DNA of 64,000 bases from a virus. This document shows, piece by piece, positions 7,051-61,226 of the stretch (positions within the stretch are counted from its first letter, which is position 1; each line of letters begins with the position of its first letter). The stretch covers positions 1 through 64,000 of IMG/VR virus record IMGVR_UViG_3300050120_000012, one strand, 5' to 3'. The notes below the pieces were generated by a model, which saw only the letters and a program-made list of their open reading frames with translations, had not been told where the DNA came from and made no database searches. A program made the position numbers and the translations under genes.

Positions 7051-8147
7051 TCGTCTTTCTTCGGTGGTTTCACTTCATAGACCTGTGTAACCATGCCAAC
7101 CTCAGGATCACCCCGACTATGGGATTTGATTTTTATAGCCCATGAGTATCGATGAAGTCGTTCAATGTATAACCATTCCCAATTTTCATTGATGCGACGA
7201 TCTGAAGTCCTGTAGTGCGCGCGAACCATATGCCAGCGGTATTTGACTTTGGTATCGAAGGCCATTTTCAGATGTTTTTCAATGTCCTTCATGCGAACGC
7301 GCTTACCGGGAATGTCGATAGATACTACGCTATTCGTTGAATAGTGTTTGATTCGTCCATCACCACGATATGAACCTTTAGGAGTATAAGGAACATATCG
7401 CACCGGCACATGACCTAGAACGGCTAGAGCGACAATCAGGAAGCGCAGATCGCCAGCTTGTTCCTTCAGAGACCGTACCATGGCGCTATAGGCAAATTGA
7501 TCGGGATTTTCCTTTTGCAGGATGGCATGAAGAGATGCCGGTTCAGGGATTATCCCAAACATTCCCCGAATATCTTTTATCTGTTTAGGATCAGAAGCAC
7601 CCCACGGAAGAGACTGAAGTTCATCGTCCTCCATAAGGACTTCCATCGTGTTCTTTATCTTGTCACCATATATACCACCGACTTTGCTTATGTCCCATTT
7701 ATCCCCATCAGTTCTGAACATAAAACTTGCAGGAAAGGCAACGAACAGATCATTGCGAGGGAGATCACCAAATGTCGTAACAGAATAGAAACCGCCGTCC
7801 ATCTTCTCTTCAATAAGAAACCCAAGCTTGATTGGAGTTCCATCGTCATTGTCAGAATGTGATCCAGTAGCCACAGCTTGGAGACGCTTGGCCGATTCTA
7901 TTCGAGCAGAGAAGTTGAACTCAACCCATGTCACAGGAAAAGGGGGATCACCTAAACGAAGATAGCTCAACAGACGTTTGCTCAACGTACTGGAGCATGA
8001 CACTTGCATAATGTAATCCACAATATCATCGTCCAAGGTGAACGGAATTGCCTTCTTCATTTGCTCGCGATAGAGCTTCATTCCCGCTTTGCCATGAGAC
8101 TCAACTATAGCTCGATTGTAGAGATCAAGATTGCGGGTGTTCTTCAT
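7047..8147 (-). CDS. Conserved phage protein of unknown function; possible +1 tail extension
   Basis: 366 residues from ATG 8145-8147, overlapping the upstream stop as ATGA. The C-terminal third (WHMVRAHYRTS...WLYIERLHRYSWAIKIKSHSRGDPEVGMVTQVYEV, given here in parts) resembles a widespread family of uncharacterised phage proteins with His-x-Val-Arg and His-x-Arg-Gly-Asp motifs; that link is from memory. The frame ends KKDD-stop at 7047. In the +1 frame the sequence continues as KTIDRDDWDIL-stop to 7022, nearly identical to the tail of the neighbouring 8144-8371 protein, so the true or ancestral end may be there. It lies in a slightly AT-richer stretch than its neighbours. Confidence 0.75.
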   Translation of the reverse strand: MKNTRNLDLYNRAIVESHGKAGMKLYREQMKKAIPFTLDDDIVDYIMQVSCSSTLSKRLLSYLRLGDPPFPVTWVEFNFSARIESAKRLQAVATGSHSDNDDGTPIKLGFLIEEKMDGGFYSVTTFGDLPRNDLFVAFPASFMFRTDGDKWDISKVGGIYGDKIKNTMEVLMEDDELQSLPWGASDPKQIKDIRGMFGIIPEPASLHAILQKENPDQFAYSAMVRSLKEQAGDLRFLIVALAVLGHVPVRYVPYTPKGSYRGDGRIKHYSTNSVVSIDIPGKRVRMKDIEKHLKMAFDTKVKYRWHMVRAHYRTSDRRINENWEWLYIERLHRYSWAIKIKSHSRGDPEVGMVTQVYEVKPPKKDD

Positions 8148-8371
8148 AGTATGTCCCAATCATCATCATCTATGGGTTTATCGCCGGGGCGTCCAAGTTC
8201 ACACCATAAAAGGTAGGCGGCTTTGCGATCCCATGACGCATCACTGATCTTGCCGCCGTTGGCGAACACGGCTTCATCACCGACGTTGTTCAGAGACGTA
8301 CCGAAGTGGCGTTCGAAGTAAATCTCGAATGGCGTCACAGCGCCGTCCTTCGGTCGATCCTTTACAGCCAT
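8144..8371 (-). CDS. Small acidic-tailed protein
   Basis: 75 residues. The body (TPFEIYFERHFGTSLNNVGDE) looks soluble and helical; the end is KPIDDDDWDIL, a clear copy of the acidic-aromatic tail found on ten proteins here. It overlaps the next gene as ATGA and the previous one by 10 bases, so it is firmly in the operon. No enzymatic motif is visible. A small adaptor that presents the tail to a partner is one possibility. Confidence 0.7.
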   Translation of the reverse strand: MAVKDRPKDGAVTPFEIYFERHFGTSLNNVGDEAVFANGGKISDASWDRKAAYLLWCELGRPGDKPIDDDDWDIL

Positions 8372-17999: not shown

Positions 18000-18261
18000 C
18001 GGTGATCGGCTCCACTCGCGGCTCATCGGTTTGGGGCCAGCACGTTGTATGGGGAATCTCCGAAATGTCCATCTTGGTTTTCCAGTGTGAACCACAGACT
18101 CGGCACATGAGGTAGGACATTGCAGACCATCGTGGCTGATAACCATTGAACGCCGATCTGGATTCATGGTCGATCAGTACCACCCATTGCCTCGGGCGCT
18201 GATTTGATCCAGCCGGTACGATCTGTGGCCGGTTTCGTTCCGTGCAGCGACAGGCGCTCAT
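17992..18261 (-). CDS. Small zinc-knuckle-like protein
   Basis: 89 residues from ATG 18259-18261 at an ATGA junction. Cysteines at the N-terminus (SACRCTERN) and in the middle (YLMCRVCGSHW) plus HTTCW could form a zinc site. Basic overall. Function unknown. Confidence 0.62.
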   Translation of the reverse strand: MSACRCTERNRPQIVPAGSNQRPRQWVVLIDHESRSAFNGYQPRWSAMSYLMCRVCGSHWKTKMDISEIPHTTCWPQTDEPRVEPITDV

Positions 18262-18899
18262 ATGATGTCCCAATCCAAAGAAGGATCGTCGAAGTCCGGT
18301 TCGGGTTCTTCAGTCTTACGGATCGGATCGCCGAACCCGTCTGTCTCGCCGGTCCACATAGACTCGACGGTCTTACGGAAGAGTTCGATGCGGTCTTTGT
18401 CAGGCTGGCGTAGTTCCGCTCGCGCTTGGATTGATCCGGGGGGTGGTAAAGAGGGGGTGCGCTCTAACCACTCCACGACAGTTTCAGTGTCGAGCGCGAG
18501 ATCGACGATGCCGGTACGCGGACGTATGGTGAGGAAGTCTAAATCCTTCAGTGGCTTCATCCACCATCGCTCAGTCTTAGCGGGCATGGTCAAAAGACCG
18601 ACGATGATCTCTTCGCCTAAACCGTCCAAGAAACGATCTGGACTGAACTCGCCGGTCGATTTGATGAGTGAATGACGCAAGGCTGCACCGACGACAGTCA
18701 GGCTATACATGCCATCTAGCTCGCGCCGCATGAGGCCATTCTTGACGCATAATTGTAGGGCTCGGGAGCGATTGACTGTGACAGCCGACTCCGATTTGCG
18801 CCCGCCTGACTTGGGCCGGTACATGGGGGATGAACCCATCTCATCCACAAGCTCAGCAAAGCCGGGATAGATTCTATGGGGCAGAGATCGGGGTTCCAT
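18258..18899 (-). CDS. First gene of the left block: winged-helix-like protein with acidic tail
   Basis: 213 residues from ATG 18897-18899. Residues about 40-75 (NRSRALQLCVKNGLMRRELD, GMYSLTVVGAALRHSL) follow a winged-helix plan; the C-terminus is acidic with EPEPDFDD and ends PSLDWDII, one of the shared tails. It is the promoter-proximal gene next to a palindromic operator, the usual place for an early regulator. It resembles the 13242-13967 protein in layout. Regulator role is inferred from position and fold. Confidence 0.68.
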   Translation of the reverse strand: MEPRSLPHRIYPGFAELVDEMGSSPMYRPKSGGRKSESAVTVNRSRALQLCVKNGLMRRELDGMYSLTVVGAALRHSLIKSTGEFSPDRFLDGLGEEIIVGLLTMPAKTERWWMKPLKDLDFLTIRPRTGIVDLALDTETVVEWLERTPSLPPPGSIQARAELRQPDKDRIELFRKTVESMWTGETDGFGDPIRKTEEPEPDFDDPSLDWDII

Positions 18900-18925
18900 G
18901 AAGCGTGAATCCTGTGAAGAATGTA

Positions 18926-18954
18926 TGCTTAGAGGGTATTTTATCCTCTGTCAA
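18926..18954 (-). promoter_or_regulatory. Main leftward promoter with palindromic operator
   Basis: Minus-strand TTGACA (18949-18954), a 17-base spacer, TAAGCA (18926-18931). The spacer is a near-perfect inverted repeat, AGAGGGTA-TTT-TATCCTCT on the plus strand (18931-18949), placed for a repressor to block polymerase. It drives the roughly 40-gene left block. Confidence 0.68.
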
Positions 18955-19020
18955 ATGGGCTAAAACCTTGGGGACAAATCCGGCGGAGTTTCACACGGCA
19001 TACATATTCGGTTTATGTCA

Positions 19021-19045
19021 GCATATACAGTATGCGAGCATATGC
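19021..19045. promoter_or_regulatory. Cluster of GCATA/TATGC half-sites
   Basis: Four alternating half-sites: GCATA 19021-19025, TATGC 19031-19035, GCATA 19038-19042 overlapping TATGC 19041-19045. They form two nested inverted repeats 70-100 bases upstream of the leftward promoter, a probable regulator-binding cluster. Confidence 0.5.
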
Positions 19046-19194
19046 AATGTCCTACATATTTGGTATTATACTGTTTTGGGGTACATTTTCATCATTCATC
19101 TCAGCGCATCAAATCAACTCACTTACAATGTGTACCTTTTAAGTGTGCTAACGGCCTAATTGAACACTCTTATCTACTAGATAAATAGATAAAA

Positions 19195-19364
19195 GGATAA
19201 AAACAGCCCTCGATTTGATCGGAAATGGCCCTAATCGTCCATCTGCATGGGCTCTCCCTTGGCCGTTTCAGGAGCCAACCGTTGCAGATCGACTTTTCGG
19301 ATCGGGTTTCATTTTGAAGAGTGGAATCGCACTAAGGAATGGCTCAAAAGTGGATAAAAACAGC
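19195..19364 (+). repeat. Two exact copies of GGATAAAAACAGC
   Basis: The same 13-mer occurs at 19195-19207 and 19352-19364. Shortened copies (GGATAAA) follow iterons at 19491 and 19542, and related copies lie at 21849, 21875 (inverted) and 21921. The element is confined to the two AT-rich non-coding regions. Confidence 0.7.
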
Positions 19365-19387
19365 ACAGGATGGACTGCGCAGCCTCA

Positions 19388-19571
19388 TTAACCTTAACGG
19401 ACGATTAACCTTAATGCCATGTTAAGGTTGACGCTTCATTAGGGTTAAGGGTCGGTCGATAGACATGAACAACACGTTAAGGTTAATTCTGGATAAATCT
19501 TACGATGGTGTTAAGGTTGATGGATCATTAAGGTTAATTCTGGATAAAACCTAACGAGCGTTAACCTTGAT
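19388..19571. repeat. GTTAAGGTTRA iteron array, candidate replication origin
   Basis: About eight copies in both orientations start at 19388, 19405, 19421, 19438, 19476, 19510, 19527 and 19561. Most spacings are 16-17 or 34 bases. Two copies (19477 and 19528) extend into a shared 21-bp repeat that includes TTCTGGATAAA. The stretch is AT-rich, non-coding and lies between diverging transcription units. Iterons of this kind bind replication initiators; a multi-site operator is the alternative. Confidence 0.72.
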
Positions 19572-19664
19572 GAAAATACACCTTAAGAAAGTTCGATTGT
19601 TAGTGACTTGTTAGGAAAGACGCTATAGATTGACGCCATAGGGGAACGACGCCCGCCGCGATCT

Positions 19665-19697
19665 TTGACATTGTGAATCCCCGTCTCGCGCTATAAA
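19665..19697 (+). promoter_or_regulatory. Candidate rightward promoter of the small operon
   Basis: TTGACA at 19665-19670 and TATAAA at 19692-19697 are 21 bases apart, longer than ideal; TTGTGA at 19671-19676 gives a 15-base spacer. The start of the first gene is 45 bases downstream. Plausible but not consensus. Confidence 0.42.
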
Positions 19698-19741
19698 GGC
19701 GCGACTGATGAGCCTCAGTTAAGGCGAAACGGGAATATGTC

Positions 19742-19900
19742 ATGTTCGGCAAAACTAACATGCAAACGAAAATGGCGACCTTCAATCAAAGGTCGCTGAA
19801 TGTGTCGCCAGCGTGGAACGGCATTTATGAACTGCGCAACTATCGCCGCTCGCAATCGCTGGCGGGTCGCCTCGCGGCTCTTCTCGGAAAGGTCGCCTAA
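19742..19900 (+). CDS. 52-residue basic protein, first gene of rightward small operon
   Basis: ATG 19742-19744 to TAA 19898-19900, sharing its last base with the next start (TAATG). Basic sequence with an N-terminal Met/Thr/Lys part (FGKTNMQTKMATFNQRS) and a helix (RRSQSLAGRLAALLGKV). Immediately follows the control region. Function unknown. Confidence 0.6.
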   Translation: MFGKTNMQTKMATFNQRSLNVSPAWNGIYELRNYRRSQSLAGRLAALLGKVA

Positions 19901-20091
19901 TGGCTCGCACCTTTCATCACGACATGATGGCGGCGCTAGACGCCGAAACCTACAGCGGTCGGACGACTCCCGACAAAACGCATTACGCCATGCGCCGCGC
20001 TCTTCGTAAGGCAAACATGCGCGGTTCTGCGATCATGAATGACAAACAACTCGCAATGGCTACCTTGGCCGAATTGGCGGAGTGGAAATAA
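19900..20091 (+). CDS. 63-residue helical protein
   Basis: Starts and ends at TAATG junctions, so it is translationally coupled on both sides. Helical (HHDMMAALDAETYSG; HYAMRRALRKANMRG; KQLAMATLAELAEW). Rich in Met and Ala with no Cys. No family recognised. Confidence 0.63.
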   Translation: MARTFHHDMMAALDAETYSGRTTPDKTHYAMRRALRKANMRGSAIMNDKQLAMATLAELAEWK

Positions 20092-20555
20092 TGGGCTATT
20101 TCGGACGCGCTGGCGACGCTGGACGCCTTACCAAAGACGATATGACTCCGGTGAACGCGGTTAGCTCGCGCAAGGCTGGACATAATCGCATCACTTGGAC
20201 AAATGATCGCGGCTTCAAGCATTTTCGCTTGATACAAACCGACGTTGTTTCGACTACGCCGGACGGTCAAGAAATCATGATCGATACGAACGGCTTTGAT
20301 AGTCGCACGACTTCCACCGCGATCATGCAAGCCGTCGATTTGTTCTACTTCGGACGCATGAGCGTGGCTAATGGTTCGTGGTATATCGGCAATGTGTGGA
20401 TGCGGTCTAAGACGCGCGAAACAAACACGCTCTTATTGATCCGCTACAATGCCGGAACTGCGACCTATGAACGTGAGGAAATCGCGTTCGATGAAAAGAT
20501 CGAAGTGAAGCGCGACCCGAAAACGGGCGATCTCACTTGGAAATCTGATCTCTAA
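20091..20555 (+). CDS. Hypothetical protein
   Basis: 154 residues from ATG 20091-20093 at a TAATG junction. Strand-rich middle (NRITWTNDRGFKHFRLIQTD, SWYIGNVWMRSKTRETNTLL) ends with lysine-rich strands. A beta-barrel-like nucleic-acid or protein-binding fold is possible. I do not recognise it. Confidence 0.63.
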   Translation: MGYFGRAGDAGRLTKDDMTPVNAVSSRKAGHNRITWTNDRGFKHFRLIQTDVVSTTPDGQEIMIDTNGFDSRTTSTAIMQAVDLFYFGRMSVANGSWYIGNVWMRSKTRETNTLLLIRYNAGTATYEREEIAFDEKIEVKRDPKTGDLTWKSDL

Positions 20556-20598
20556 ACTTAAACCGCGCGAGATAGCGCAAACCTGAAAGACTAAACAA

Positions 20599-21057
20599 AT
20601 GACCTATTACGTTTTCGACAATGGCGAAGCGATGGAAGCCAGCCATGAAATCAAAGACGCGAAAGCCGTTTCTAAAGCGGTCTATCTCAAGGCTCGCGCT
20701 GAATATGCCAAAAAGCGGCTTCTGACGATGATCTCGCCCAAAGACACGATTTATTGCGTCCTGAAGCATCGCGCGCCGTCCGGCATGTCGCGGAGTATCG
20801 AGTTCCTGATAACGTGGTCTAAGGACGGCAAAACCGGCATACAGTCGATCACTCATTATATGGCTGATCTTGGCTGGAAATTCGATCAAACACACGGCGG
20901 TTTGAGGATCGGCGGTTGTGGGATGGATGCGGGTTTCGGCGCGGTCTATAGCTTGGGTCGCATCTTGTGGACGAACGGTACAGACAAGCCGCACGGCGTG
21001 CGCAATGGCGAACCTGATAGCGATGGCGGTTACGCTATCGGTCATAGCTGGCTTTAA
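20599..21057 (+). CDS. Conserved phage protein with SGMSR / GCGMDAGF motifs
   Basis: 152 residues from ATG 20599-20601. The combination CVLKHRAPSGMSRSIEFLI, later LRIGGCGMDAGFGAVYSLGR, matches an uncharacterised family I recall from diverse phages and plasmids (SGMSR ... GCGMDxGF). The fixed Cys, Asp and Ser suggest an active or metal site but no activity is established to my knowledge. Encoded next to the iteron region, so an early or replication-linked role is possible. Confidence 0.7.
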   Translation: MTYYVFDNGEAMEASHEIKDAKAVSKAVYLKARAEYAKKRLLTMISPKDTIYCVLKHRAPSGMSRSIEFLITWSKDGKTGIQSITHYMADLGWKFDQTHGGLRIGGCGMDAGFGAVYSLGRILWTNGTDKPHGVRNGEPDSDGGYAIGHSWL

Positions 21058-21071
21058 TCGGAGTTCATGCA

Positions 21072-21482
21072 ATGACAATCAAAGACGAACTAATCAGCGC
21101 CGAAACCGCAACGCAAATCCGCGCCAATGTTGACACGTTCAACGCTTGGCTTGGTGATCGCCGCTCATGGCGACCTGAAGAAGTTCCTTCGCATATCGTC
21201 CAAGTGACGAACGATCAAAAAGGCGAACTAGAACGTTTTGAGACGTTCCGCGATATGCCGTCCAAGTTGTTCGTATATGTGAAGATATATGGTGCGAACG
21301 ATGTAACTGCGACCGTCTGGACTGGTCAACCGCTTGGACATGGCAAAGCGTCAACTGCATATCGCAGCAACTTCGGAGATCGTCGCCGCTCGATAACCAT
21401 TACGATCAACGGCCAAAAGTACCACGGAACGGCATACGTTGACGCTGGCGACTATGCGCGATTAACGAAGTCCAAGCGATGA
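21072..21482 (+). CDS. Hypothetical protein
   Basis: 136 residues from ATG 21072-21074. Helical first third (ELISAETATQIRANVDTFNA), then strands (KLFVYVKIYGANDVTATVWT, RRSITITINGQKYHGTAYVD). No known motif. Last well-supported gene of the small rightward operon. Confidence 0.62.
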   Translation: MTIKDELISAETATQIRANVDTFNAWLGDRRSWRPEEVPSHIVQVTNDQKGELERFETFRDMPSKLFVYVKIYGANDVTATVWTGQPLGHGKASTAYRSNFGDRRRSITITINGQKYHGTAYVDAGDYARLTKSKR

Positions 21483-22036: not shown

Positions 22037-22822
22037 ATGGCGCTTGGACCCGCACAAAAAGCCGAACTGATCGACGCGATTTACGTCAAGCTAGGCGTTC
22101 CTGCGGCTGCGGAACACTGTCATCTGAAGCTCCGCGACGTTCTGACGGAGATGGATGACGATGAGGACTTCGGAGCCGCCGTAGAGCAAGCTATGGCTCA
22201 CCTGACACCCTTGGCCGAACAAGAGCTATTCCGCCGGGCAGTCCATGGGACGGAGAATTACGTCGTCAATCAGGGCCGCGTGGTCTTCCTCACCAATTCA
22301 GACGGCATATCGAAGCCTCTGATAGAGAAGAAGTATAGCGATGGCCTCCTGACGAAGTTCCTAGAGGCACGCAAGAAAGACGTTTTTGGAGCCAAAGTCG
22401 AAGTTGCTCACAAGCATAGCGGCTTTATTGCCGTCCCGGTCATGTCCATGGAGGAAATCCAGAACATGCTCGACTCTCCGGGAGATGAAGTGACCTTTAT
22501 CGACGCCAGCTATCAAGAGATCGTCGGTCAACGCCCCTTGGCCGTTGCAGATGCCGATGTTGAGGCCGATTGGCCGCCTCAGAGCGCGGATAGCGAGCCT
22601 CGGGCCTCACAAGCTGTTATCCAAGAGCGTGTCCGCGCTCTGACGACGCCCCGGCAAGAGCCCGAACTGATCGACTTCGACCCTCGGGACGACGCCATGG
22701 AGTTCGTCATGGATCGGCTGGAGGATGAGCCGGACTTTGAGTTCGTCACGGCTGAGATCGAAGACACCGCCGAAGAGCTTAAGACGTTCGACGATGACGA
22801 TGAACCGGACTTCGGCGTCTAA
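22037..22822 (+). CDS. terS: Terminase small subunit
   Basis: 261 residues from ATG 22037-22039; no clear ribosome site precedes it (TTAACC only). The N-terminus (AELIDAIYVKLGVPAAAEHC) fits a helix-turn-helix DNA-recognition part, and GTENYVVNQGRVVF, then LLTKFLEARKKDVFG, are typical of alphaproteobacterial phage small terminases. It recognises viral DNA for packaging. The last 70 residues are acidic with repeated EPDFEF and EPDFGV, one of the shared tails. The stop shares a base with the large-subunit start region (TAATG). Assignment rests on motif and position. Confidence 0.8.
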   Translation: MALGPAQKAELIDAIYVKLGVPAAAEHCHLKLRDVLTEMDDDEDFGAAVEQAMAHLTPLAEQELFRRAVHGTENYVVNQGRVVFLTNSDGISKPLIEKKYSDGLLTKFLEARKKDVFGAKVEVAHKHSGFIAVPVMSMEEIQNMLDSPGDEVTFIDASYQEIVGQRPLAVADADVEADWPPQSADSEPRASQAVIQERVRALTTPRQEPELIDFDPRDDAMEFVMDRLEDEPDFEFVTAEIEDTAEELKTFDDDDEPDFGV

Positions 22823-24420
22823 TGGCTCAAGTTGCAACCGCACTCAAGCCCGTAGGCTCCCAATCTTATGTCAATCATAAGAAGCGCCTGACGAAGGACG
22901 CCACTTGGAAGCCCCAAGGTAAGGCCCAAGCCATCGCGCTCGCCTGTACGATGGTCAACGAAGTCCTCATGGAGGGCAATCGCGGCGGCGGTAAGACTAT
23001 CACCCTCATCATGACCTACGTCTCCCAAGTCGGACGCGGATGGGGTGCGAACTGGCGCGGCGTGATCTTCCGTCAGACCCATCCCGCGCTGAAGGACATC
23101 ATCAAACAATCCAAGCAATGGATTCCGCTGATCTATCCCGGCGCGAAGTTCACTCACAATGATAGCACATGGACTTTCCCTGAAGGCGAACAACTGACAT
23201 TCAGCCACTTCGCCAATCCCGACGACTATAAAGCATGGCACGGCCAAGAGCTTCCATTCATTGGATGGGAAGAACTCACCAACTGGTCTAACGATGAATG
23301 CTATTCCGTTATGCTGTCCTGCAATCGTTCCTCGGCTGCGCCAAATCCTCTCACAGGCGAAGAGATGCCCCGGATCGTTCGCTCGACCACAAACCCATAC
23401 GGCCCCGGACGGCTATGGGTGAAAGAACGGTGGGAACTCCCCGACATGCGCGGGAAGATCAGGACCGGGCTTGTGAACGACAAAGGCGAATCTCTTGGGG
23501 ATCGCCTCGCTATCCAGTTCTCGCTCGAATCTAACAAGATCATGCTCGACAATGACCCGAACTATCGGGCCAAGGTGCGCGCCGCGACCCAAGGCAATGA
23601 GGCCATGGAGAAGGCGTGGCTCGACGGGGATTGGGAGATCAGTGTCGGGGGCATGTTTGACGACCTGTGGGACCGTAAGGTACACGTCGTGGAACCCTTT
23701 GACCTACCCGGCGGTTCTACTCGTGGCGGCGGTGGCTGGAAGCTCTATAGGGCCTTCGATTACGGTTTCAGTAAGCCTTACTCCATAGGTCTTTACGCGG
23801 TATCCGATGGGACACCATATCATGATCGTCAAGGCAATCTTCACACTTCTATTAACGGTGACGTATATCGCGTTGCCGAAATCTATGGTTGGGACGGGAA
23901 ACCTAATCATGGATGCAGGGAAGAGCCCGGCGAGATCGCCCAACGCCTGCTAGACTTTGAGATTGCTTGGGGAATACATGGGCTAGTCCAGCCCGGCCCC
24001 GCCGACTTGAACATCTTCTCTCGCGAACAAGGCAAGGCGATGCACGATGAGTTCGTGTCTCGCAAGGTCAACTTCCGCAAGGCGGCCAAGGAACCCGGCT
24101 CGCGCGTCCGGGGATGGATGCTGATCCGTCAGAAGCTCCTGAACGCCCTCCCGCGCTACCTCAATCCCGATGGGACGATTGTGTCGTCCAAGGATCGGAA
24201 GAAGGTCCACCCGGACGCCAAGCCTCTGCGTCGGGAAGAGCCTGCATTGTTCTTCTTCGGTGAAGACCGTAACAAGCATTTGCTGCGGACGATGATTGGT
24301 GCGCCGCGAGATGAGAAGAACCCGGACGACATTGACACAGACTATGAAGATCACGCTCTGGACGAACTTCGATACTATATGACAACGAAGAAGATAGAGA
24401 TCAAGCAAAGCAACTATTGA
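22822..24420 (+). CDS. terL: Terminase large subunit (packaging ATPase/nuclease)
   Basis: 532 residues. Walker A GNRGGGKT at 52-59, Walker B LPFIGWEE at 144-151, coupling region STTNPYGPG near 188-196, and an RNase H-like nuclease domain beginning AFDYGFSKP at 311-319 with Asp313 as the first acidic residue. It is the motor that pumps and cuts DNA at the portal. The start overlaps the small-subunit stop, as usual for the pair. Assignment secure. Confidence 0.95.
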   Translation: MAQVATALKPVGSQSYVNHKKRLTKDATWKPQGKAQAIALACTMVNEVLMEGNRGGGKTITLIMTYVSQVGRGWGANWRGVIFRQTHPALKDIIKQSKQWIPLIYPGAKFTHNDSTWTFPEGEQLTFSHFANPDDYKAWHGQELPFIGWEELTNWSNDECYSVMLSCNRSSAAPNPLTGEEMPRIVRSTTNPYGPGRLWVKERWELPDMRGKIRTGLVNDKGESLGDRLAIQFSLESNKIMLDNDPNYRAKVRAATQGNEAMEKAWLDGDWEISVGGMFDDLWDRKVHVVEPFDLPGGSTRGGGGWKLYRAFDYGFSKPYSIGLYAVSDGTPYHDRQGNLHTSINGDVYRVAEIYGWDGKPNHGCREEPGEIAQRLLDFEIAWGIHGLVQPGPADLNIFSREQGKAMHDEFVSRKVNFRKAAKEPGSRVRGWMLIRQKLLNALPRYLNPDGTIVSSKDRKKVHPDAKPLRREEPALFFFGEDRNKHLLRTMIGAPRDEKNPDDIDTDYEDHALDELRYYMTTKKIEIKQSNY

Positions 24421-55390: not shown

Positions 55391-57567
55391 TACTTACGAT
55401 ACCGGAGCATGGCTGCGCCTTCGGCGGCGATGGGGAAGCCTCTGCCCCAATTCGGAAGGTGACACATGAGATCGCATAGAAGCTGCGCAGCGGCTTTGCT
55501 TCCACCTAATGCTTCGACGCGGACGATCTCCAGCGCCGTGACTAGCTCATCGTGGACGGTAAGTAGAAGCTCGAATTGACCATGACGCTTTACGACCCGC
55601 ATAGCGTGCGCCATAAGATCGCGACACAAAGCCTGTACGATGTTCTCGACTAGCTTTCCCCCGTAGGTGTAGCTCCGATCCCACTTCTTCGTGAAGCTGT
55701 TGATCTCCATGTACGAGATCGCCAGCTTCCTCGACTTCGTGTATGTGACCTTGCCTGTCACTTCGTCCACGTCTTCCCATACGCGCTCCGTCCATTCCAG
55801 CTTGGGATAGGGATAGGGGATCAGCCTGCCCGAAGGCAACTGGCAAAACAGGAAGCGCCCGGCGCGCTTATAGGCAATGTGCGAATTGACGCGGACTACC
55901 GATCCGGGGTTCTGCATCGCCTCGATAGCTGCGCCCTCACAGGCGTACCAAAAGGCTTTGACCGGCGCATGACGCTCACGATAGCCAAGGATGCCTTTCT
56001 TGGCCGTGTCTAGGTCAATGATGATCTTCGATTGAGCGCAGTAGTCAATGAACTTCGGAGGGCCTAGCTGATACCCTGCGCCCAAGATGATTTGCTTGCC
56101 GAACTGGCGTTCATCGGCCCAACGGATAGACGGGGCTTTGTTCTTCTTATCTTCATCGAACTCGCGTTTGATCGTCGCGTAGTCGAGATTGTTTACGAAG
56201 GCCGCCATCTCCAGATAGGAGTCGATGCCCTGATTGAATAGCTCTACGCCGTCGTGGTGATCGCAGACCCAAAACAGACCGCGTGCTTCCACGGATGAAT
56301 AGTCGGCGGTGACAAGCATCTTATCTTTGCCGGGCAGGATCGCACCACGCAACGCGCCAGAGAAGACGCTGTAGAGATCGTCATACTCTTCTTCTAGTTC
56401 CTCTGCGTCCAAGTTCATAAGAGCAAAGACGGTATCGTCCATGTTCTTAATCTTGCCACGCGGAAGGTTCTGCGGCTGGATGCCTACTCCCGCCCACCGG
56501 GACGTGCGAGATGCACCGGCATACATGAGAACGTCTCTACACCGCCCGTCGTCAGACGCACGGTATCGAATGGTCTTATATTTTGCTGTTGATGCGCGAC
56601 CAGCCATACGCACACGACTAACAACGCCGTGTATATGGTCTGGAAGGAAATCATCTTCCAAGAGCGCGTCGAGAGTAGCAGCCTGCGTATTGGGAAGTTC
56701 AAAGCCATTTTCTAGCATCCATTCTTTGAGTTGATTTCGCGCTGTGACTTTCGGGACTTTCCCGTCAGTTAGACGCTGTATCTCTTCTTCATACTTCCCC
56801 CGAAGGTATGCCAAGGTCTCCATTGCCTTATCGACAAGTTCAAGGTCGATAGGGATGCCGCGTTCGTTGATCTCCTGATCGATCAGCCAAATCTCTTGCT
56901 CGACCGGCGATAGATCAGGGAGGGATTGACTGAACCGCTCTTCAGCGAGAACGTCCTTCCGGCAATAGACGATCAGACGCTTGATAGATGTCGCGTCTTG
57001 AACCCATCGCTCGGGTTGCTTCTTCGTCGCCTTCTTCGGACGACACATGGTCATCATGAGCTTGTGACCTTCCTTGTCCTTCTGGACAGGGAGGTTCATG
57101 ATCTCACAGCACTTCTCCAGACCACGCGGGAGACTGTACGATGCAGCCTTGGCCGCCGAACATCTCCATTGCACGTCTGGAATGTCGGGCCAGAACTCAG
57201 GGACTAGCTTGCTGCGCCAGACGGCGCGTTCGAACATGGCATTGTGGGCTTCAACGACTCCGCCATCTTCGATCCACTTGCATAGATCGGCTGGCGGCGG
57301 CATCCGTGGGACGCCACAGATGTCCGCGATCCAATCGGGAACCCACACCGCTGTCTTGCCCTCGGGCCAGAAGGGCAGGCGGTAGCAGAGGCACATGACC
57401 TGTGTGGAGTCGTCCGACGCATAGCGCCAAGCGCCGGACTTCTTTAGATCGATCCGCGACCTTGTTTCGAAGTCGATAGTGGCGCGTTGAAGACGTGTTT
57501 TTGCTGGAGGCTTCGGCTTGCGAACCTCTACTCCGGGACCGCCAATGGTTCCGAGATCAAAAGCCAT
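55390..57567 (-). CDS. Family A DNA polymerase with 3'-5' exonuclease domain
   Basis: 725 residues from ATG 57565-57567. The N-terminal exonuclease starts with DFE (32-34) in TIDFETRSRIDLKKSGAW and continues to a KDVLAEE near 204-210. The polymerase has motif A ADYSSVEARG (421-430), motif B RQFGKQIILGAGYQ (487-500) and motif C VHDEL (671-675). The exonuclease lacks the 5'-3' domain of cellular Pol I, as normal in phages. This is the replicative enzyme; TAATG joins it to the GapR-like gene. Confidence 0.95.
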   Translation of the reverse strand: MAFDLGTIGGPGVEVRKPKPPAKTRLQRATIDFETRSRIDLKKSGAWRYASDDSTQVMCLCYRLPFWPEGKTAVWVPDWIADICGVPRMPPPADLCKWIEDGGVVEAHNAMFERAVWRSKLVPEFWPDIPDVQWRCSAAKAASYSLPRGLEKCCEIMNLPVQKDKEGHKLMMTMCRPKKATKKQPERWVQDATSIKRLIVYCRKDVLAEERFSQSLPDLSPVEQEIWLIDQEINERGIPIDLELVDKAMETLAYLRGKYEEEIQRLTDGKVPKVTARNQLKEWMLENGFELPNTQAATLDALLEDDFLPDHIHGVVSRVRMAGRASTAKYKTIRYRASDDGRCRDVLMYAGASRTSRWAGVGIQPQNLPRGKIKNMDDTVFALMNLDAEELEEEYDDLYSVFSGALRGAILPGKDKMLVTADYSSVEARGLFWVCDHHDGVELFNQGIDSYLEMAAFVNNLDYATIKREFDEDKKNKAPSIRWADERQFGKQIILGAGYQLGPPKFIDYCAQSKIIIDLDTAKKGILGYRERHAPVKAFWYACEGAAIEAMQNPGSVVRVNSHIAYKRAGRFLFCQLPSGRLIPYPYPKLEWTERVWEDVDEVTGKVTYTKSRKLAISYMEINSFTKKWDRSYTYGGKLVENIVQALCRDLMAHAMRVVKRHGQFELLLTVHDELVTALEIVRVEALGGSKAAAQLLCDLMCHLPNWGRGFPIAAEGAAMLRYRK

Positions 57568-57920
57568 TACTTATCAGACGGAGCGATCATCTCAAGCGCG
57601 GCTTCATAGAGTTCGATCAGCGCCTCTTCTTCCTGACGCTTGGCCTTGTCTTGCTTCCGGCGCGCGATGACCTTGCGCATGATCTTCACGTCAAAGCCTT
57701 CACCCTTGGCTTCAAGGAAGACTTCCTTCTTATCGGTCTTCACCGCATCTTCGTCTTCCTGAAGACGCTCGATACGCTCGACGAAGGACTTCATCCGCGT
57801 CTGCGCCGTGGTGGACATCATATCCAGCGCCACGCCTACTTCATCGCCGTTGAATGACTCTAGGCCATTGCCGAAGTCAATGTCGCCGTCTTCGGCTTCC
57901 AAATCGAAATCACCGGCCAT
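57567..57920 (-). CDS. GapR-like (DUF2312) chromatin protein
   Basis: 117 residues from ATG 57918-57920, with GTGAGG acting as ribosome site. From about residue 35 on the sequence (QTRMKSFVERIERLQEDEDA; VFLEAKGEGFDVKIMRKVIA; RRKQDKAKRQEEEALIELYE) is the DUF2312 signature; its best-known member, Caulobacter GapR, forms a coiled-coil clamp on overtwisted DNA and stimulates topoisomerases. The N-terminal 30 residues are an added acidic/aromatic segment (AGDFDLEAEDGDIDFGNG) close to the shared tail motif. It is directly upstream of the polymerase gene. Confidence 0.88.
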   Translation of the reverse strand: MAGDFDLEAEDGDIDFGNGLESFNGDEVGVALDMMSTTAQTRMKSFVERIERLQEDEDAVKTDKKEVFLEAKGEGFDVKIMRKVIARRKQDKAKRQEEEALIELYEAALEMIAPSDK

Positions 57921-57921
57921 G

Positions 57922-58491
57922 TTAGTACGCCTCACCTTGATTGGGATCGGTGATGTCGAGATAATCTCTCCAATACACCCACTTCCATTGCATCGTCGGA
58001 TTGTTGACCCGGCTTACGATGACTTCGCCGGTATCGTCTTGATAGTTCGCGGGTGGACACCAAAAGCCCCAATCCCGCTCGCGCTCGCCACGGAAGATCA
58101 GGGTGAGGACCGTCCGGGTATGCAGCCGCGTGATCCTGTGAGCGTGCTGTGGCCGCCTCGCACGGTAGCTGAGCCACCGGAGGGTGTCAGGGATCAGGAG
58201 GCCGCTAGGCGGGTTCTCCAGCCCATTGTTCGTCTGCGCCACAAGCGACTCCTGCGGCTCATGGGACACTTCATCGTACCCACCGTAAAGGATCAGCGTG
58301 CGAAAGCTCCACGGATGATCGTGGAAGACGCGATCAGCGTCCGGTCGATAGAATTTGTGGAGATAGATGCGGAGCTTGAAAGGCCACCACTTCCACGGCG
58401 TCAGGTGCGTCCGTACAAGATAGGGTTGGCCGTTTGTGTCGATCCATTCGACGTACATGCCAAGCGGTAATTGCTTAGTACGGATACCCAT
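57922..58491 (-). CDS. Cupin-like protein
   Basis: 189 residues from ATG 58489-58491 with the leader TTCACAGAGGTTCACATG. RVFHDHPWSFRTLILYGGYD provides His-x-His and the strand-turn typical of cupins, and HAHRITRLH later supplies more His residues. The centre could bind a metal and an organic ligand. Known small phage cupins are poorly characterised. A cytoplasmic enzyme acting on nucleotides or sugars is possible. Confidence 0.6.
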   Translation of the reverse strand: MGIRTKQLPLGMYVEWIDTNGQPYLVRTHLTPWKWWPFKLRIYLHKFYRPDADRVFHDHPWSFRTLILYGGYDEVSHEPQESLVAQTNNGLENPPSGLLIPDTLRWLSYRARRPQHAHRITRLHTRTVLTLIFRGERERDWGFWCPPANYQDDTGEVIVSRVNNPTMQWKWVYWRDYLDITDPNQGEAY

Positions 58492-59642: not shown

Positions 59643-61226
59643 TTAGAGAATATCCCATTCGTCGGCGTCGGGTGCGGCGAGTAGCAGCGGTTCCCCGTCG
59701 TCCACGACACTGAAGTCCGCGTCGATAATGCCAAGCTCTTCGTCGCCCAAGTCACTGAACGGATTGATCTCGATTGCAGGACGCGCGTCGGTGATCGGAA
59801 CTAGGGTGAGCTTACCTTCCGGGTGGAAGGACAGTTGGGCCACAAGGTCTTTACCGATCTCGGGTATCTTCTCCAGTTGAGCCGGTGTCTTGCACTTCGG
59901 CTCTTTGAAGATGTCCTTATCTGGAATACCCATGTTGCGCAGACGCTTGATCGTGTCCGCTTCATTCTTCAGCTTTCGATTAGACCGCTTGCGGACGATC
60001 TTCTGGCCTTCGATGGCATAGCCGTTTTCAGCCTCATGCTGAGCGTAGGCTTGAACGTCGCGGATCATGGCGTCCAGCACAGGTGCGAGACGGAGGATGG
60101 TGAGCATCCGCTGGCGATCTCCGATGACGCTGGCGACCATCTTCTTCGATAGGTTCTCACCGGCTTCTGATAGCACTTGCTTGACACCTTTCTGAATGAC
60201 GAACTCTTCGTCGCCTAAGTCTGTGAAGTCCTGCAAAGCAAGCGACTGAGCTTGGTCGAATAAGGCGGGACAAGGCTTCGCCTTACCATTGCAGAAGAAG
60301 CATTGGACTTCGCCGGGGACTAGCGGCGCATCCGGGTCTTCGGTCGCTATTGCAGCTTCAATGAGAGTCTTCGTGAAATCCATGACTTCATCGATAGTGT
60401 AGTCCCACGTTCTAATAGGACCGTCTCTGTGAGCCGCGCGAGGTTGAACGATAACGGTACGGACGATCTTCGGTAAGTCCCCTCGATCTCTACATATTTC
60501 GAGGATAGCCCCAAGAGCATAATACAGAAGTTGAGGATTGAATTTAGCTTCGACGACTTTACCTCTTCCGTGCTTGTAATCAAGAACGATAAGGATTTCG
60601 CCTCTGACGAAGAAGCAATAGTCATTTGTTCCGAACATGCCGGGATAGAGGCGACTGAGATCAAATCCCTTTTCAAGGAAAATATGAACGTCGTCTTTGT
60701 CATAAGTAGCATACAGTTCCTCCGTAATGCGGGCGATCTCTAGTGTGTATTTCGCCACGGCATCGGCCATGTCTTCATCGATCTCAAAGACGATCACGTC
60801 GTCTTCTTCCTCATCCGGGTAGTCGTCGGTGAGGTTGCCTTTGATGTCGATAAACTGTCCGATGAACCAATGCGGATGAACGTCGGACGACAGTGCAAGC
60901 TCCGCTAGATGGTGAGCACACGTTCCCTCTTGAGCAAACCGGCTGGATCGGTTCGGCATCCCCTTGGACATGCGGACGGAGCCGGGACACTTCATCCATC
61001 GATCTGAGGACGACGCACCTAATACGGCGTGGACCTTGCCATCCTCTGACGTGTGGCCTTCCTTCTTCCCATGGGCTTGAGGCCCTAGCACGGATAGCAG
61101 CGTCGGAACCCGATTTTCCAGCCCCATCTCCGCAACGATGTCGTCGAAGTTTATATGGGGATTGGCGATCAGAGTTGTGACCTTGGCGATCACCTTCTCT
61201 TTGTTCTTCGCTGCGAAGTCGATCAT
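59643..61226 (-). CDS. DUF2800 (Cas4/RecB-like) nuclease
   Basis: 527 residues, ATGA junction with the helicase gene. HAVLGASSSDRWMKCPGSVR near 65-85 is the DUF2800 opening signature; LIVLDYKHGRGKVVEAKFNP near 210-230 has the Asp-x-Lys of the PD-(D/E)XK core, and QCFFCNGKAKPCPALFDQ near 305 the Fe-S/zinc-type cysteines. Family members work with DUF2815 SSBs in phage DNA processing. Repeats of 'FTDLGDEEF' and 'FSDLGDEEL' precede the end PDADEWDIL, one of the shared tails. Confidence 0.85.
   Translation of the reverse strand: MIDFAAKNKEKVIAKVTTLIANPHINFDDIVAEMGLENRVPTLLSVLGPQAHGKKEGHTSEDGKVHAVLGASSSDRWMKCPGSVRMSKGMPNRSSRFAQEGTCAHHLAELALSSDVHPHWFIGQFIDIKGNLTDDYPDEEEDDVIVFEIDEDMADAVAKYTLEIARITEELYATYDKDDVHIFLEKGFDLSRLYPGMFGTNDYCFFVRGEILIVLDYKHGRGKVVEAKFNPQLLYYALGAILEICRDRGDLPKIVRTVIVQPRAAHRDGPIRTWDYTIDEVMDFTKTLIEAAIATEDPDAPLVPGEVQCFFCNGKAKPCPALFDQAQSLALQDFTDLGDEEFVIQKGVKQVLSEAGENLSKKMVASVIGDRQRMLTILRLAPVLDAMIRDVQAYAQHEAENGYAIEGQKIVRKRSNRKLKNEADTIKRLRNMGIPDKDIFKEPKCKTPAQLEKIPEIGKDLVAQLSFHPEGKLTLVPITDARPAIEINPFSDLGDEELGIIDADFSVVDDGEPLLLAAPDADEWDIL

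What the first reader, a model, noticed from the sequence alone, without database searches (positions are those of the whole stretch)
19388..19571. Phased GTTAAGGTTRA iteron array: candidate origin or master operator
Eight copies (19388, 19405, 19421, 19438, 19476, 19510, 19527, 19561) in both orientations with spacings of 16-17, 34 or 38 bases. It lies in the longest non-coding, AT-rich gap, between diverging operons, and GC-rich coding starts resume right after. Iterons with about 17-bp phasing are typical for initiator binding, but none of the window's proteins is an obvious initiator, so the binder may be new (candidates: 18258, 13242 or the small rightward operon).
Basis: seen in the sequence. 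Interest (0 to 1): 0.72.

Follow-up and report, generated by a model that had tools for sequence, protein, structure and literature searches.

The report
CtrA-box operator array in Brevundimonas-type phage
A cluster of short repeats between two opposite-facing gene blocks of this phage is most likely a landing strip for the host's own cell-cycle master regulator CtrA, as already shown in its relative Brevundimonas phage Delta, so it probably lets the phage read the host's cell-cycle stage rather than being a replication origin.

Summary
The eight repeats are real, at the stated places and far beyond chance. They form one array in a 71.8-kb phage record that is colinear with Brevundimonas phage vB_BsubS-Delta. 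Delta and its sister phages carry the same repeats in the same divergent gap. In Delta this gap is published: 30 TTAA, 12 of them in canonical TTAA-N7-TTAA boxes of the host cell-cycle regulator CtrA; an 81-bp probe from it was gel-shifted by CtrA~P and its promoter was repressed by CtrA (PMC9437464). In the window the 17-bp phasing is what tandem 15-bp CtrA boxes with 2-bp spacers give: seven boxes with at most one mismatch, starting at 19394-19534. Site concentration (H=0.54) matches Delta (0.58) and no other relative scored; blastn of the gap finds only Brevundimonas and Caulobacter phages. So 'master operator' is right, 'origin' is unsupported, and the binder is probably a host protein. 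The TTAA-SS-TTAA palindrome that recurs in these arrays is not explained by the N7 box alone and could be a second operator type. Novelty: new member of a known kind.

The parts
18900..19741 (.). divergent intergenic gap, 43% G+C, holding the array; orthologous to the 1.3-kb gap of Brevundimonas phage Delta
19388..19571 (.). the array: eight TTAAGGTTRA-like units (19388-, 19405-, 19421+, 19438+, 19476+, 19510+, 19527+, 19561-)
19394..19408 (.). exact CtrA box TTAA-N7-TTAA (TTAACGGACGATTAA)
19411..19425 (.). exact CtrA box TTAA-N7-TTAA (TTAATGCCATGTTAA), 17 bp after the first
19466..19548 (.). five CtrA boxes with one mismatch, starting at 19466, 19483, 19500, 19517, 19534: strictly 17 bp apart
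19662..19704 (+). leader/promoter block conserved with Delta and Leszy (TCTTTGACATnGT...ATCCC...GCGC...GGCGCG, small hairpin)
19742..19900 (+). first small gene of the rightward operon (52 aa), nearest rightward candidate target of the array
19900..21482 (+). small rightward genes (19900-20091 matches Delta 1574-1762 at 40%)
22037..24420 (+). terminase small and large subunits, start of the structural module
18258..18899 (-). first leftward gene (213 aa, no family; acidic ...DWDII tail); not detected in the Brevundimonas phages, so unlikely to be the binder

Best explanation
The array is a cluster of tandem binding sites for CtrA, the host's cell-cycle response regulator, in a phage of a CtrA-encoding alphaproteobacterium, most likely in Caulobacterales. 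Shown here: each 17-bp period of the two runs holds one 15-bp TTAA-N7-TTAA box (at most one mismatch) plus a 2-bp spacer, so the TTAA-SS-TTAA units are the junctions between adjacent boxes; array, position and neighbouring modules are shared with Brevundimonas phage Delta and its sister phages. Shown by others in Delta (PMC9437464): CtrA~P binds an 81-bp probe from this gap and represses the promoter there. Inferred: phosphorylated host CtrA coats about 150-180 bp of the gap, and this couples transcription of the flanking operons (most likely the rightward small-gene/terminase operon, whose candidate promoter lies 50-130 bp from the array) to the host cell cycle. I favour repression while CtrA~P is high (swarmer cells) and release when CtrA is cleared, by analogy with Delta; the sign is not shown for this phage.
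For: TTAA-N7-TTAA with <=1 mismatch: 7 of 11 sites of the window lie in the array, at 19394, 19411, 19466, 19483, 19500, 19517, 19534; 7 observed in the gap vs mean 0.82, maximum 6 in 1000 shuffles. Whole-genome colinearity with Delta: primase 48%, major capsid 65%, DNA polymerase 51%, terminase 41%. Same repeats in the same gap of Delta, Leszy, Poludnitsa; all exact boxes of BabaJaga and Fanboy also lie in one cluster each. A further uncultured relative, G043 (primase 49%, terminase 45%), has it 4.8 kb upstream of its terminase. Our Delta count (30 TTAA, 6 exact boxes) reproduces the published 30 TTAA, 12 in boxes. Positional entropy 0.54 in the window, 0.58 Delta, 0.59 Leszy, 0.81 or more in the other scored records; published cut-off 0.75. 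Zero exact boxes and zero TTAASSTTAA in 11 of 11 other named relatives, seven with non-alphaproteobacterial hosts. blastn of the gap against 50,697 phages at E<=10 returns only 11 Brevundimonas and 4 Caulobacter phage records. CtrA binding and regulation in Delta: PMC9437464.
Against: Only two boxes are exact; five have one mismatch. The host of this phage is unknown. The strongest repeat by eye is the 10-bp TTAA-SS-TTAA palindrome, and in other phages it also occurs at spacings that make no N7 box (18 bp in L196, 13 bp in L172 and L205). DELTA_120, the ORF whose promoter was tested in Delta, has no counterpart in the window gap. Four relatives with alphaproteobacterial hosts (Roseobacter, two Rhodobacter, Rhizobium) lack the array, so a CtrA-encoding host is not sufficient. 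No binding was measured on this sequence.
Confidence: 0.8

Rival explanations
1. The real unit is the 10-bp palindrome TTAA-SS-TTAA, an operator for another dimeric regulator (host or phage); CtrA boxes arise as a by-product of 17-bp phasing, or CtrA and this protein share the sites.
For: N2 spacing is the commonest TTAA spacing at short range in all four gaps (4, 9, 9, 10 pairs against 2, 6, 4, 4 for N7). Arrays with 18- or 13-bp spacing contain the palindrome but no N7 box. Lacusarx has 12 TTAASSTTAA clustered at 120.8-129.8 kb but its only exact N7 box lies elsewhere. At 65 isolated palindromes a further exact TTAA sits 17 bp away in 34 cases, against 4 at N7.
Against: With one mismatch allowed, a half-site at N7 flanks 30 of 65 isolated palindromes, well above neighbouring spacings. 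CtrA binding and regulation are measured in Delta, phiCbK and Cp1R7A-A1, with the shift lost or reduced on mutating N7 boxes in the latter two. No candidate second protein was found.
Confidence: 0.17
2. Iteron-type replication origin bound by the phage primase-helicase (record 64756-67269) or an unknown initiator.
For: Repeats with fixed phase in an A+T-rich divergent gap; the record encodes a Prim-Pol/PriCT_2/DUF5906 protein; several phages with a related protein carry two-way short-repeat arrays of other sequence, some flanking A+T-rich centres; TTATCCA-type DnaA-like words cluster here.
Against: No GC-skew turn at the array. The same repeat appears in phiCbK-like phages at many separate promoters, which one origin would not need. 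The palindrome clusters in the 317- and 322-kb records CcrSC and CcrBL9, where the DUF5906 search found nothing.
Confidence: 0.08
3. Packaging (pac) or small-terminase binding site.
For: Lies upstream of the terminase genes; Delta's DNA is circularly permuted (PMC9437464).
Against: 2.5 kb from the small terminase gene; absent from relatives with homologous terminases.
Confidence: 0.02

Closest known systems
[quoted passage not shown]
   Same: Same divergent gap between the same modules, same TTAA-N7-TTAA boxes and TTAA-SS-TTAA units, conserved leader block downstream, genome colinear.
   Different: Window array is smaller (15 vs 30 TTAA in the gap; 2 vs 6 exact boxes), strictly 17-bp phased, ends about 50 bp from the nearest candidate -10 instead of more than 200 bp, and has no DELTA_120 ORF.
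CtrA sites in the terminal repeats of phiCbK-like Caulobacter phages (CcrSC, CcrBL9) and Sphingobium phage Lacusarx
   Same: Same palindrome, often with a further half-site at N7.
   Different: There single units or small groups stand at many promoters in long terminal repeats; here one array in one gap.
pilA promoter of Caulobacter crescentus with four CtrA boxes (PMC11264516)
   Same: Several CtrA boxes upstream of one promoter; the upstream ones reduce and delay expression.
   Different: Host gene; only four boxes; one overlaps the -35 element, which is not shown here.
Iteron origins bound by primase-helicases (P4 alpha, SaPI Rep; from general knowledge)
   Same: Short repeats in an A+T-rich intergenic stretch, initiator-type protein encoded in the genome.
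   Different: Repeat matches the box of a host transcription factor and is shared with promoters of unrelated phages.

Membership tests
Low-positional-entropy (LPEG) phages with CtrA-site-dense gaps | more than 5 predicted CtrA sites with normalized positional entropy below 0.75 | tested here: met
   12 sites (<=1 mismatch to TTAA-N7-TTAA), H=0.54; Delta 0.58; other scored relatives 0.81-1.00. Consensus used instead of the published PSSM.
Low-positional-entropy (LPEG) phages with CtrA-site-dense gaps | sites concentrated in an intergenic gap or terminal repeat | tested here: met
   7 of the 12 sites lie in the gap at 19394-19548
Low-positional-entropy (LPEG) phages with CtrA-site-dense gaps | canonical TTAA-N7-TTAA boxes | tested here: met
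   two exact, five with one mismatch
Low-positional-entropy (LPEG) phages with CtrA-site-dense gaps | alphaproteobacterial host that encodes CtrA | tested here: inconclusive
   host unknown; nearest cultured relatives infect Brevundimonas; GANTC depletion did not discriminate
Low-positional-entropy (LPEG) phages with CtrA-site-dense gaps | CtrA~P binds and regulates the flanking gene | not testable with these tools
   shown for Delta by others
Low-positional-entropy (LPEG) phages with CtrA-site-dense gaps | pilus- or flagellum-dependent infection | not testable with these tools
   no adsorption data
Iteron-type phage replication origin | repeats bound by a phage initiator | not testable with these tools
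   candidate primase-helicase exists outside the window; no binding data
Iteron-type phage replication origin | GC-skew turn at the array | tested here: not met
   cumulative skew minimum 33844, maximum 68421; array in mid-range; skew is confounded by gene direction
Iteron-type phage replication origin | repeat restricted to genomes with the cognate initiator | tested here: not met
   the same palindrome is clustered in CcrSC and CcrBL9, where the DUF5906 search found nothing

The most novel reading that the evidence does not exclude
TTAA-SS-TTAA is a separate palindromic operator, bound by a second regulator besides CtrA, that recurs in phages of Caulobacterales and Sphingomonadales both as phased arrays and as single promoter elements; the N7 CtrA boxes are layered onto it by 17-bp phasing, giving a composite operator that integrates two signals.
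Probability: 0.17. Interest if true: 0.6.

Novelty: new member of a known kind. Interest (0 to 1): 0.42.

Why it matters
It extends the CtrA-reading gap, known from Delta, to a phage whose proteins are mostly only 30-65% identical to Delta's and to an uncultured relative (G043), showing that the array outlasts most of the surrounding sequence. It also yields a simple packing rule (15-bp CtrA boxes every 17 bp) and a concrete question: what reads the TTAA-SS-TTAA palindrome that the N7 box alone does not explain.

Tried and rejected
P0001 (18258) as binder: no tblastn hit in phages even at E 10, not found in Delta, single-sequence model useless (pLDDT 39.5). Scans of IMG/VR for relatives of the primase and of P0001 with back-translated peptides found none. 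The idea that the array is the iteron origin of the DUF5906 primase-helicase was followed through 18 records: six DUF5906-positive phages besides the window phage have two-way arrays of other sequence, others none; dropped for this array after Delta and phiCbK-like phages showed the same repeat. GANTC avoidance as host evidence: window 0.64, no different from relatives. Rfam search of the gap: nothing. GC skew: no turn. Sigma-70 scan: no better than shuffles.

Full report
Observation. The repeats are present as described. In a genome-wide search for clusters of similar 10-mers the place scores 13.5 and nothing else in the 71.8-kb record exceeds 6.3. In 1000 dinucleotide-preserving shuffles of the gap, at most 5 TTAA-NN-TTAA units appear against 8 observed, and at most 6 TTAA-N7-TTAA units against 7 observed. 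The unit is TTAA-GG/CC-TTAA, a palindrome apart from its two central bases.

What the phage is. The window is bases 1-64000 of an IMG/VR virus record of 71,812 bases. Its closest named relatives are Brevundimonas phages Delta, Leszy, BabaJaga, Fanboy and Poludnitsa: primase 48% identical over its full length, major capsid 65%, and gene order shared over almost the whole genome. More distant relatives include Mesyanzhinovviridae of Pseudomonas, Bordetella, Stenotrophomonas, Xanthomonas and Janthinobacterium.

The same array in the relatives. Delta's record is cut inside its array: the last 90 bases and the first 230 bases are dense with TTAAGGTTAA, TTAACCTTAA and TTAACGTTAA. Leszy, a circular record, shows it whole; Poludnitsa has it too, and the exact boxes of BabaJaga and Fanboy form one cluster each. 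An uncultured 87.6-kb relative, G043, has it 4.8 kb upstream of its terminase, followed by the same leader block. The leader after the array (TCTTTGACATnGT...ATCCC...GCGC...GGCGCG) is conserved between window and Delta, so the gaps are orthologous and not merely similar.

What binds it. For Delta this gap has been studied (PMC9437464): 30 TTAA, 12 of them forming canonical TTAA-N7-TTAA CtrA boxes; phosphorylated CtrA shifts an 81-bp probe from it; a reporter from it rises when CtrA is impaired, which the authors read as repression. My count on the Delta gap gives the same 30 TTAA and 6 exact boxes. In the window, boxes with at most one mismatch start at 19394, 19411, 19466, 19483, 19500, 19517 and 19534. 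Within each of the two runs the step is exactly 17 bp: a 15-bp box plus a 2-bp spacer. Sites are concentrated as in Delta (entropy 0.54 against 0.58; other scored records 0.81 or more), absent from eleven other named relatives, and the gap as a blastn query finds only Brevundimonas and Caulobacter phages among 50,697 records.

How it most likely works (inference). CtrA~P is high in swarmer and predivisional cells and is cleared at the swarmer-to-stalked transition (background in PMC9437464). A row of boxes 17 bp apart should be filled cooperatively and respond sharply to CtrA~P. The right edge of the array lies about 50 bp from the nearest candidate -10 (GCTATAGA near 19622) and about 90-120 bp from the conserved leader element, so the rightward small-gene and terminase operon is the nearest target; the leftward operon starts about 490 bp away. 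In pilA of Caulobacter, upstream CtrA boxes reduce and delay expression (PMC11264516). I expect repression or delay; only a reporter can tell. The authors of the Delta paper call the wider idea lytic deferment.

What does not fit completely. The palindrome is commoner than the N7 box in every gap examined. Some uncultured phages carry 18- or 13-bp arrays of it with no N7 box. In phiCbK-like and Lacusarx-like records isolated palindromes have a half-site at N7 in 30 of 65 cases (one mismatch allowed), but an exact TTAA 17 bp away in 34 of 65. The terms '17 bp' and 'spacing' do not occur in the main text of the Delta paper. Either CtrA reads more arrangements than N7, or a second protein shares the sites.

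Why not an origin. There is no skew turn; the same unit stands at many promoters in other phages; and phages with a related primase-helicase but other hosts have arrays of other sequence, or none. An additional role in replication is not excluded: at the Caulobacter chromosomal origin CtrA sites are known (general knowledge; also cited in PMC9437464), and TTTTTATCC words occur only near here in this genome.

Limits. The host is unknown, no experiment was possible on this sequence, and the entropy test used a consensus instead of the published matrix.

Noticed in passing
8144-8371, 18258-18899, 59643-61226 (window); record 64756-67269 and 68120-68758 (L083:4756-7269, L083:8120-8758): Five proteins (75-aa protein, P0001, DUF2800 nuclease, primase-helicase, methyltransferase-like) end in the same acidic tail [DE]WDI[IL]; some relatives' primases end in SSB-like ..VPF/LPF/IPF. 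Looks like a shared docking peptide for a replisome hub.
   Followed up: partly
L015:4752-5032, L120:18650-18925, L024:2283-2472, L025:4531-4800, L038:4553-4810, L106:1226-1440, L111:15253-15435: Phages with a DUF5906 primase-helicase carry two-way short-repeat arrays of different sequence (ACTCTACCTT, GTCCTTAAG, GACTCCCAA, GTCTACCC, TGACTTTACT); several flank an A+T-rich centre, and G008 has two copies 35 kb apart: candidate iteron origins.
   Followed up: partly
19195, 19352, 21849, 21875 (plus TTATCCAGA at 19488 and 19539): TTTTTATCC occurs four times in the whole record, all here; two TTCTGGATAAA copies sit in phase inside the array, resembling DnaA boxes.
   Followed up: partly
19001-19064: A second repeat cluster in the leftward promoter region: TATGTCAGCATATACA/TATGCGAGCATATGCA 17 bp apart, flanked by TACATATTCGGT and TACATATTTGGT; may be the operator of a phage regulator.
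   Followed up: no
57567-57935 (-): Phage-encoded GapR-like DNA-binding protein (PF10073, E 2e-27).
   Followed up: no
L264-L272: In Lacusarx-like and phiCbK-like records the promoters often repeat a longer plan: GTAA-N7-TTAAGGTTAAC-N17-GTTAACCAT-...-TTGAC; the N17 half-site is not part of the standard CtrA box.
   Followed up: partly
L196:1847-2017; L172:4456-4585; L205:10957-11081: Uncultured phage contigs with TTAACCTTAA arrays at 18- or 13-bp spacing, i.e. with few or no N7 boxes.
   Followed up: no
L129:12430-12800 (G014): Non-coding stretch of GGTGT/GGTTC 5-mers alternating with four near-identical hairpins, about 1.1 kb upstream of the primase gene.
   Followed up: no
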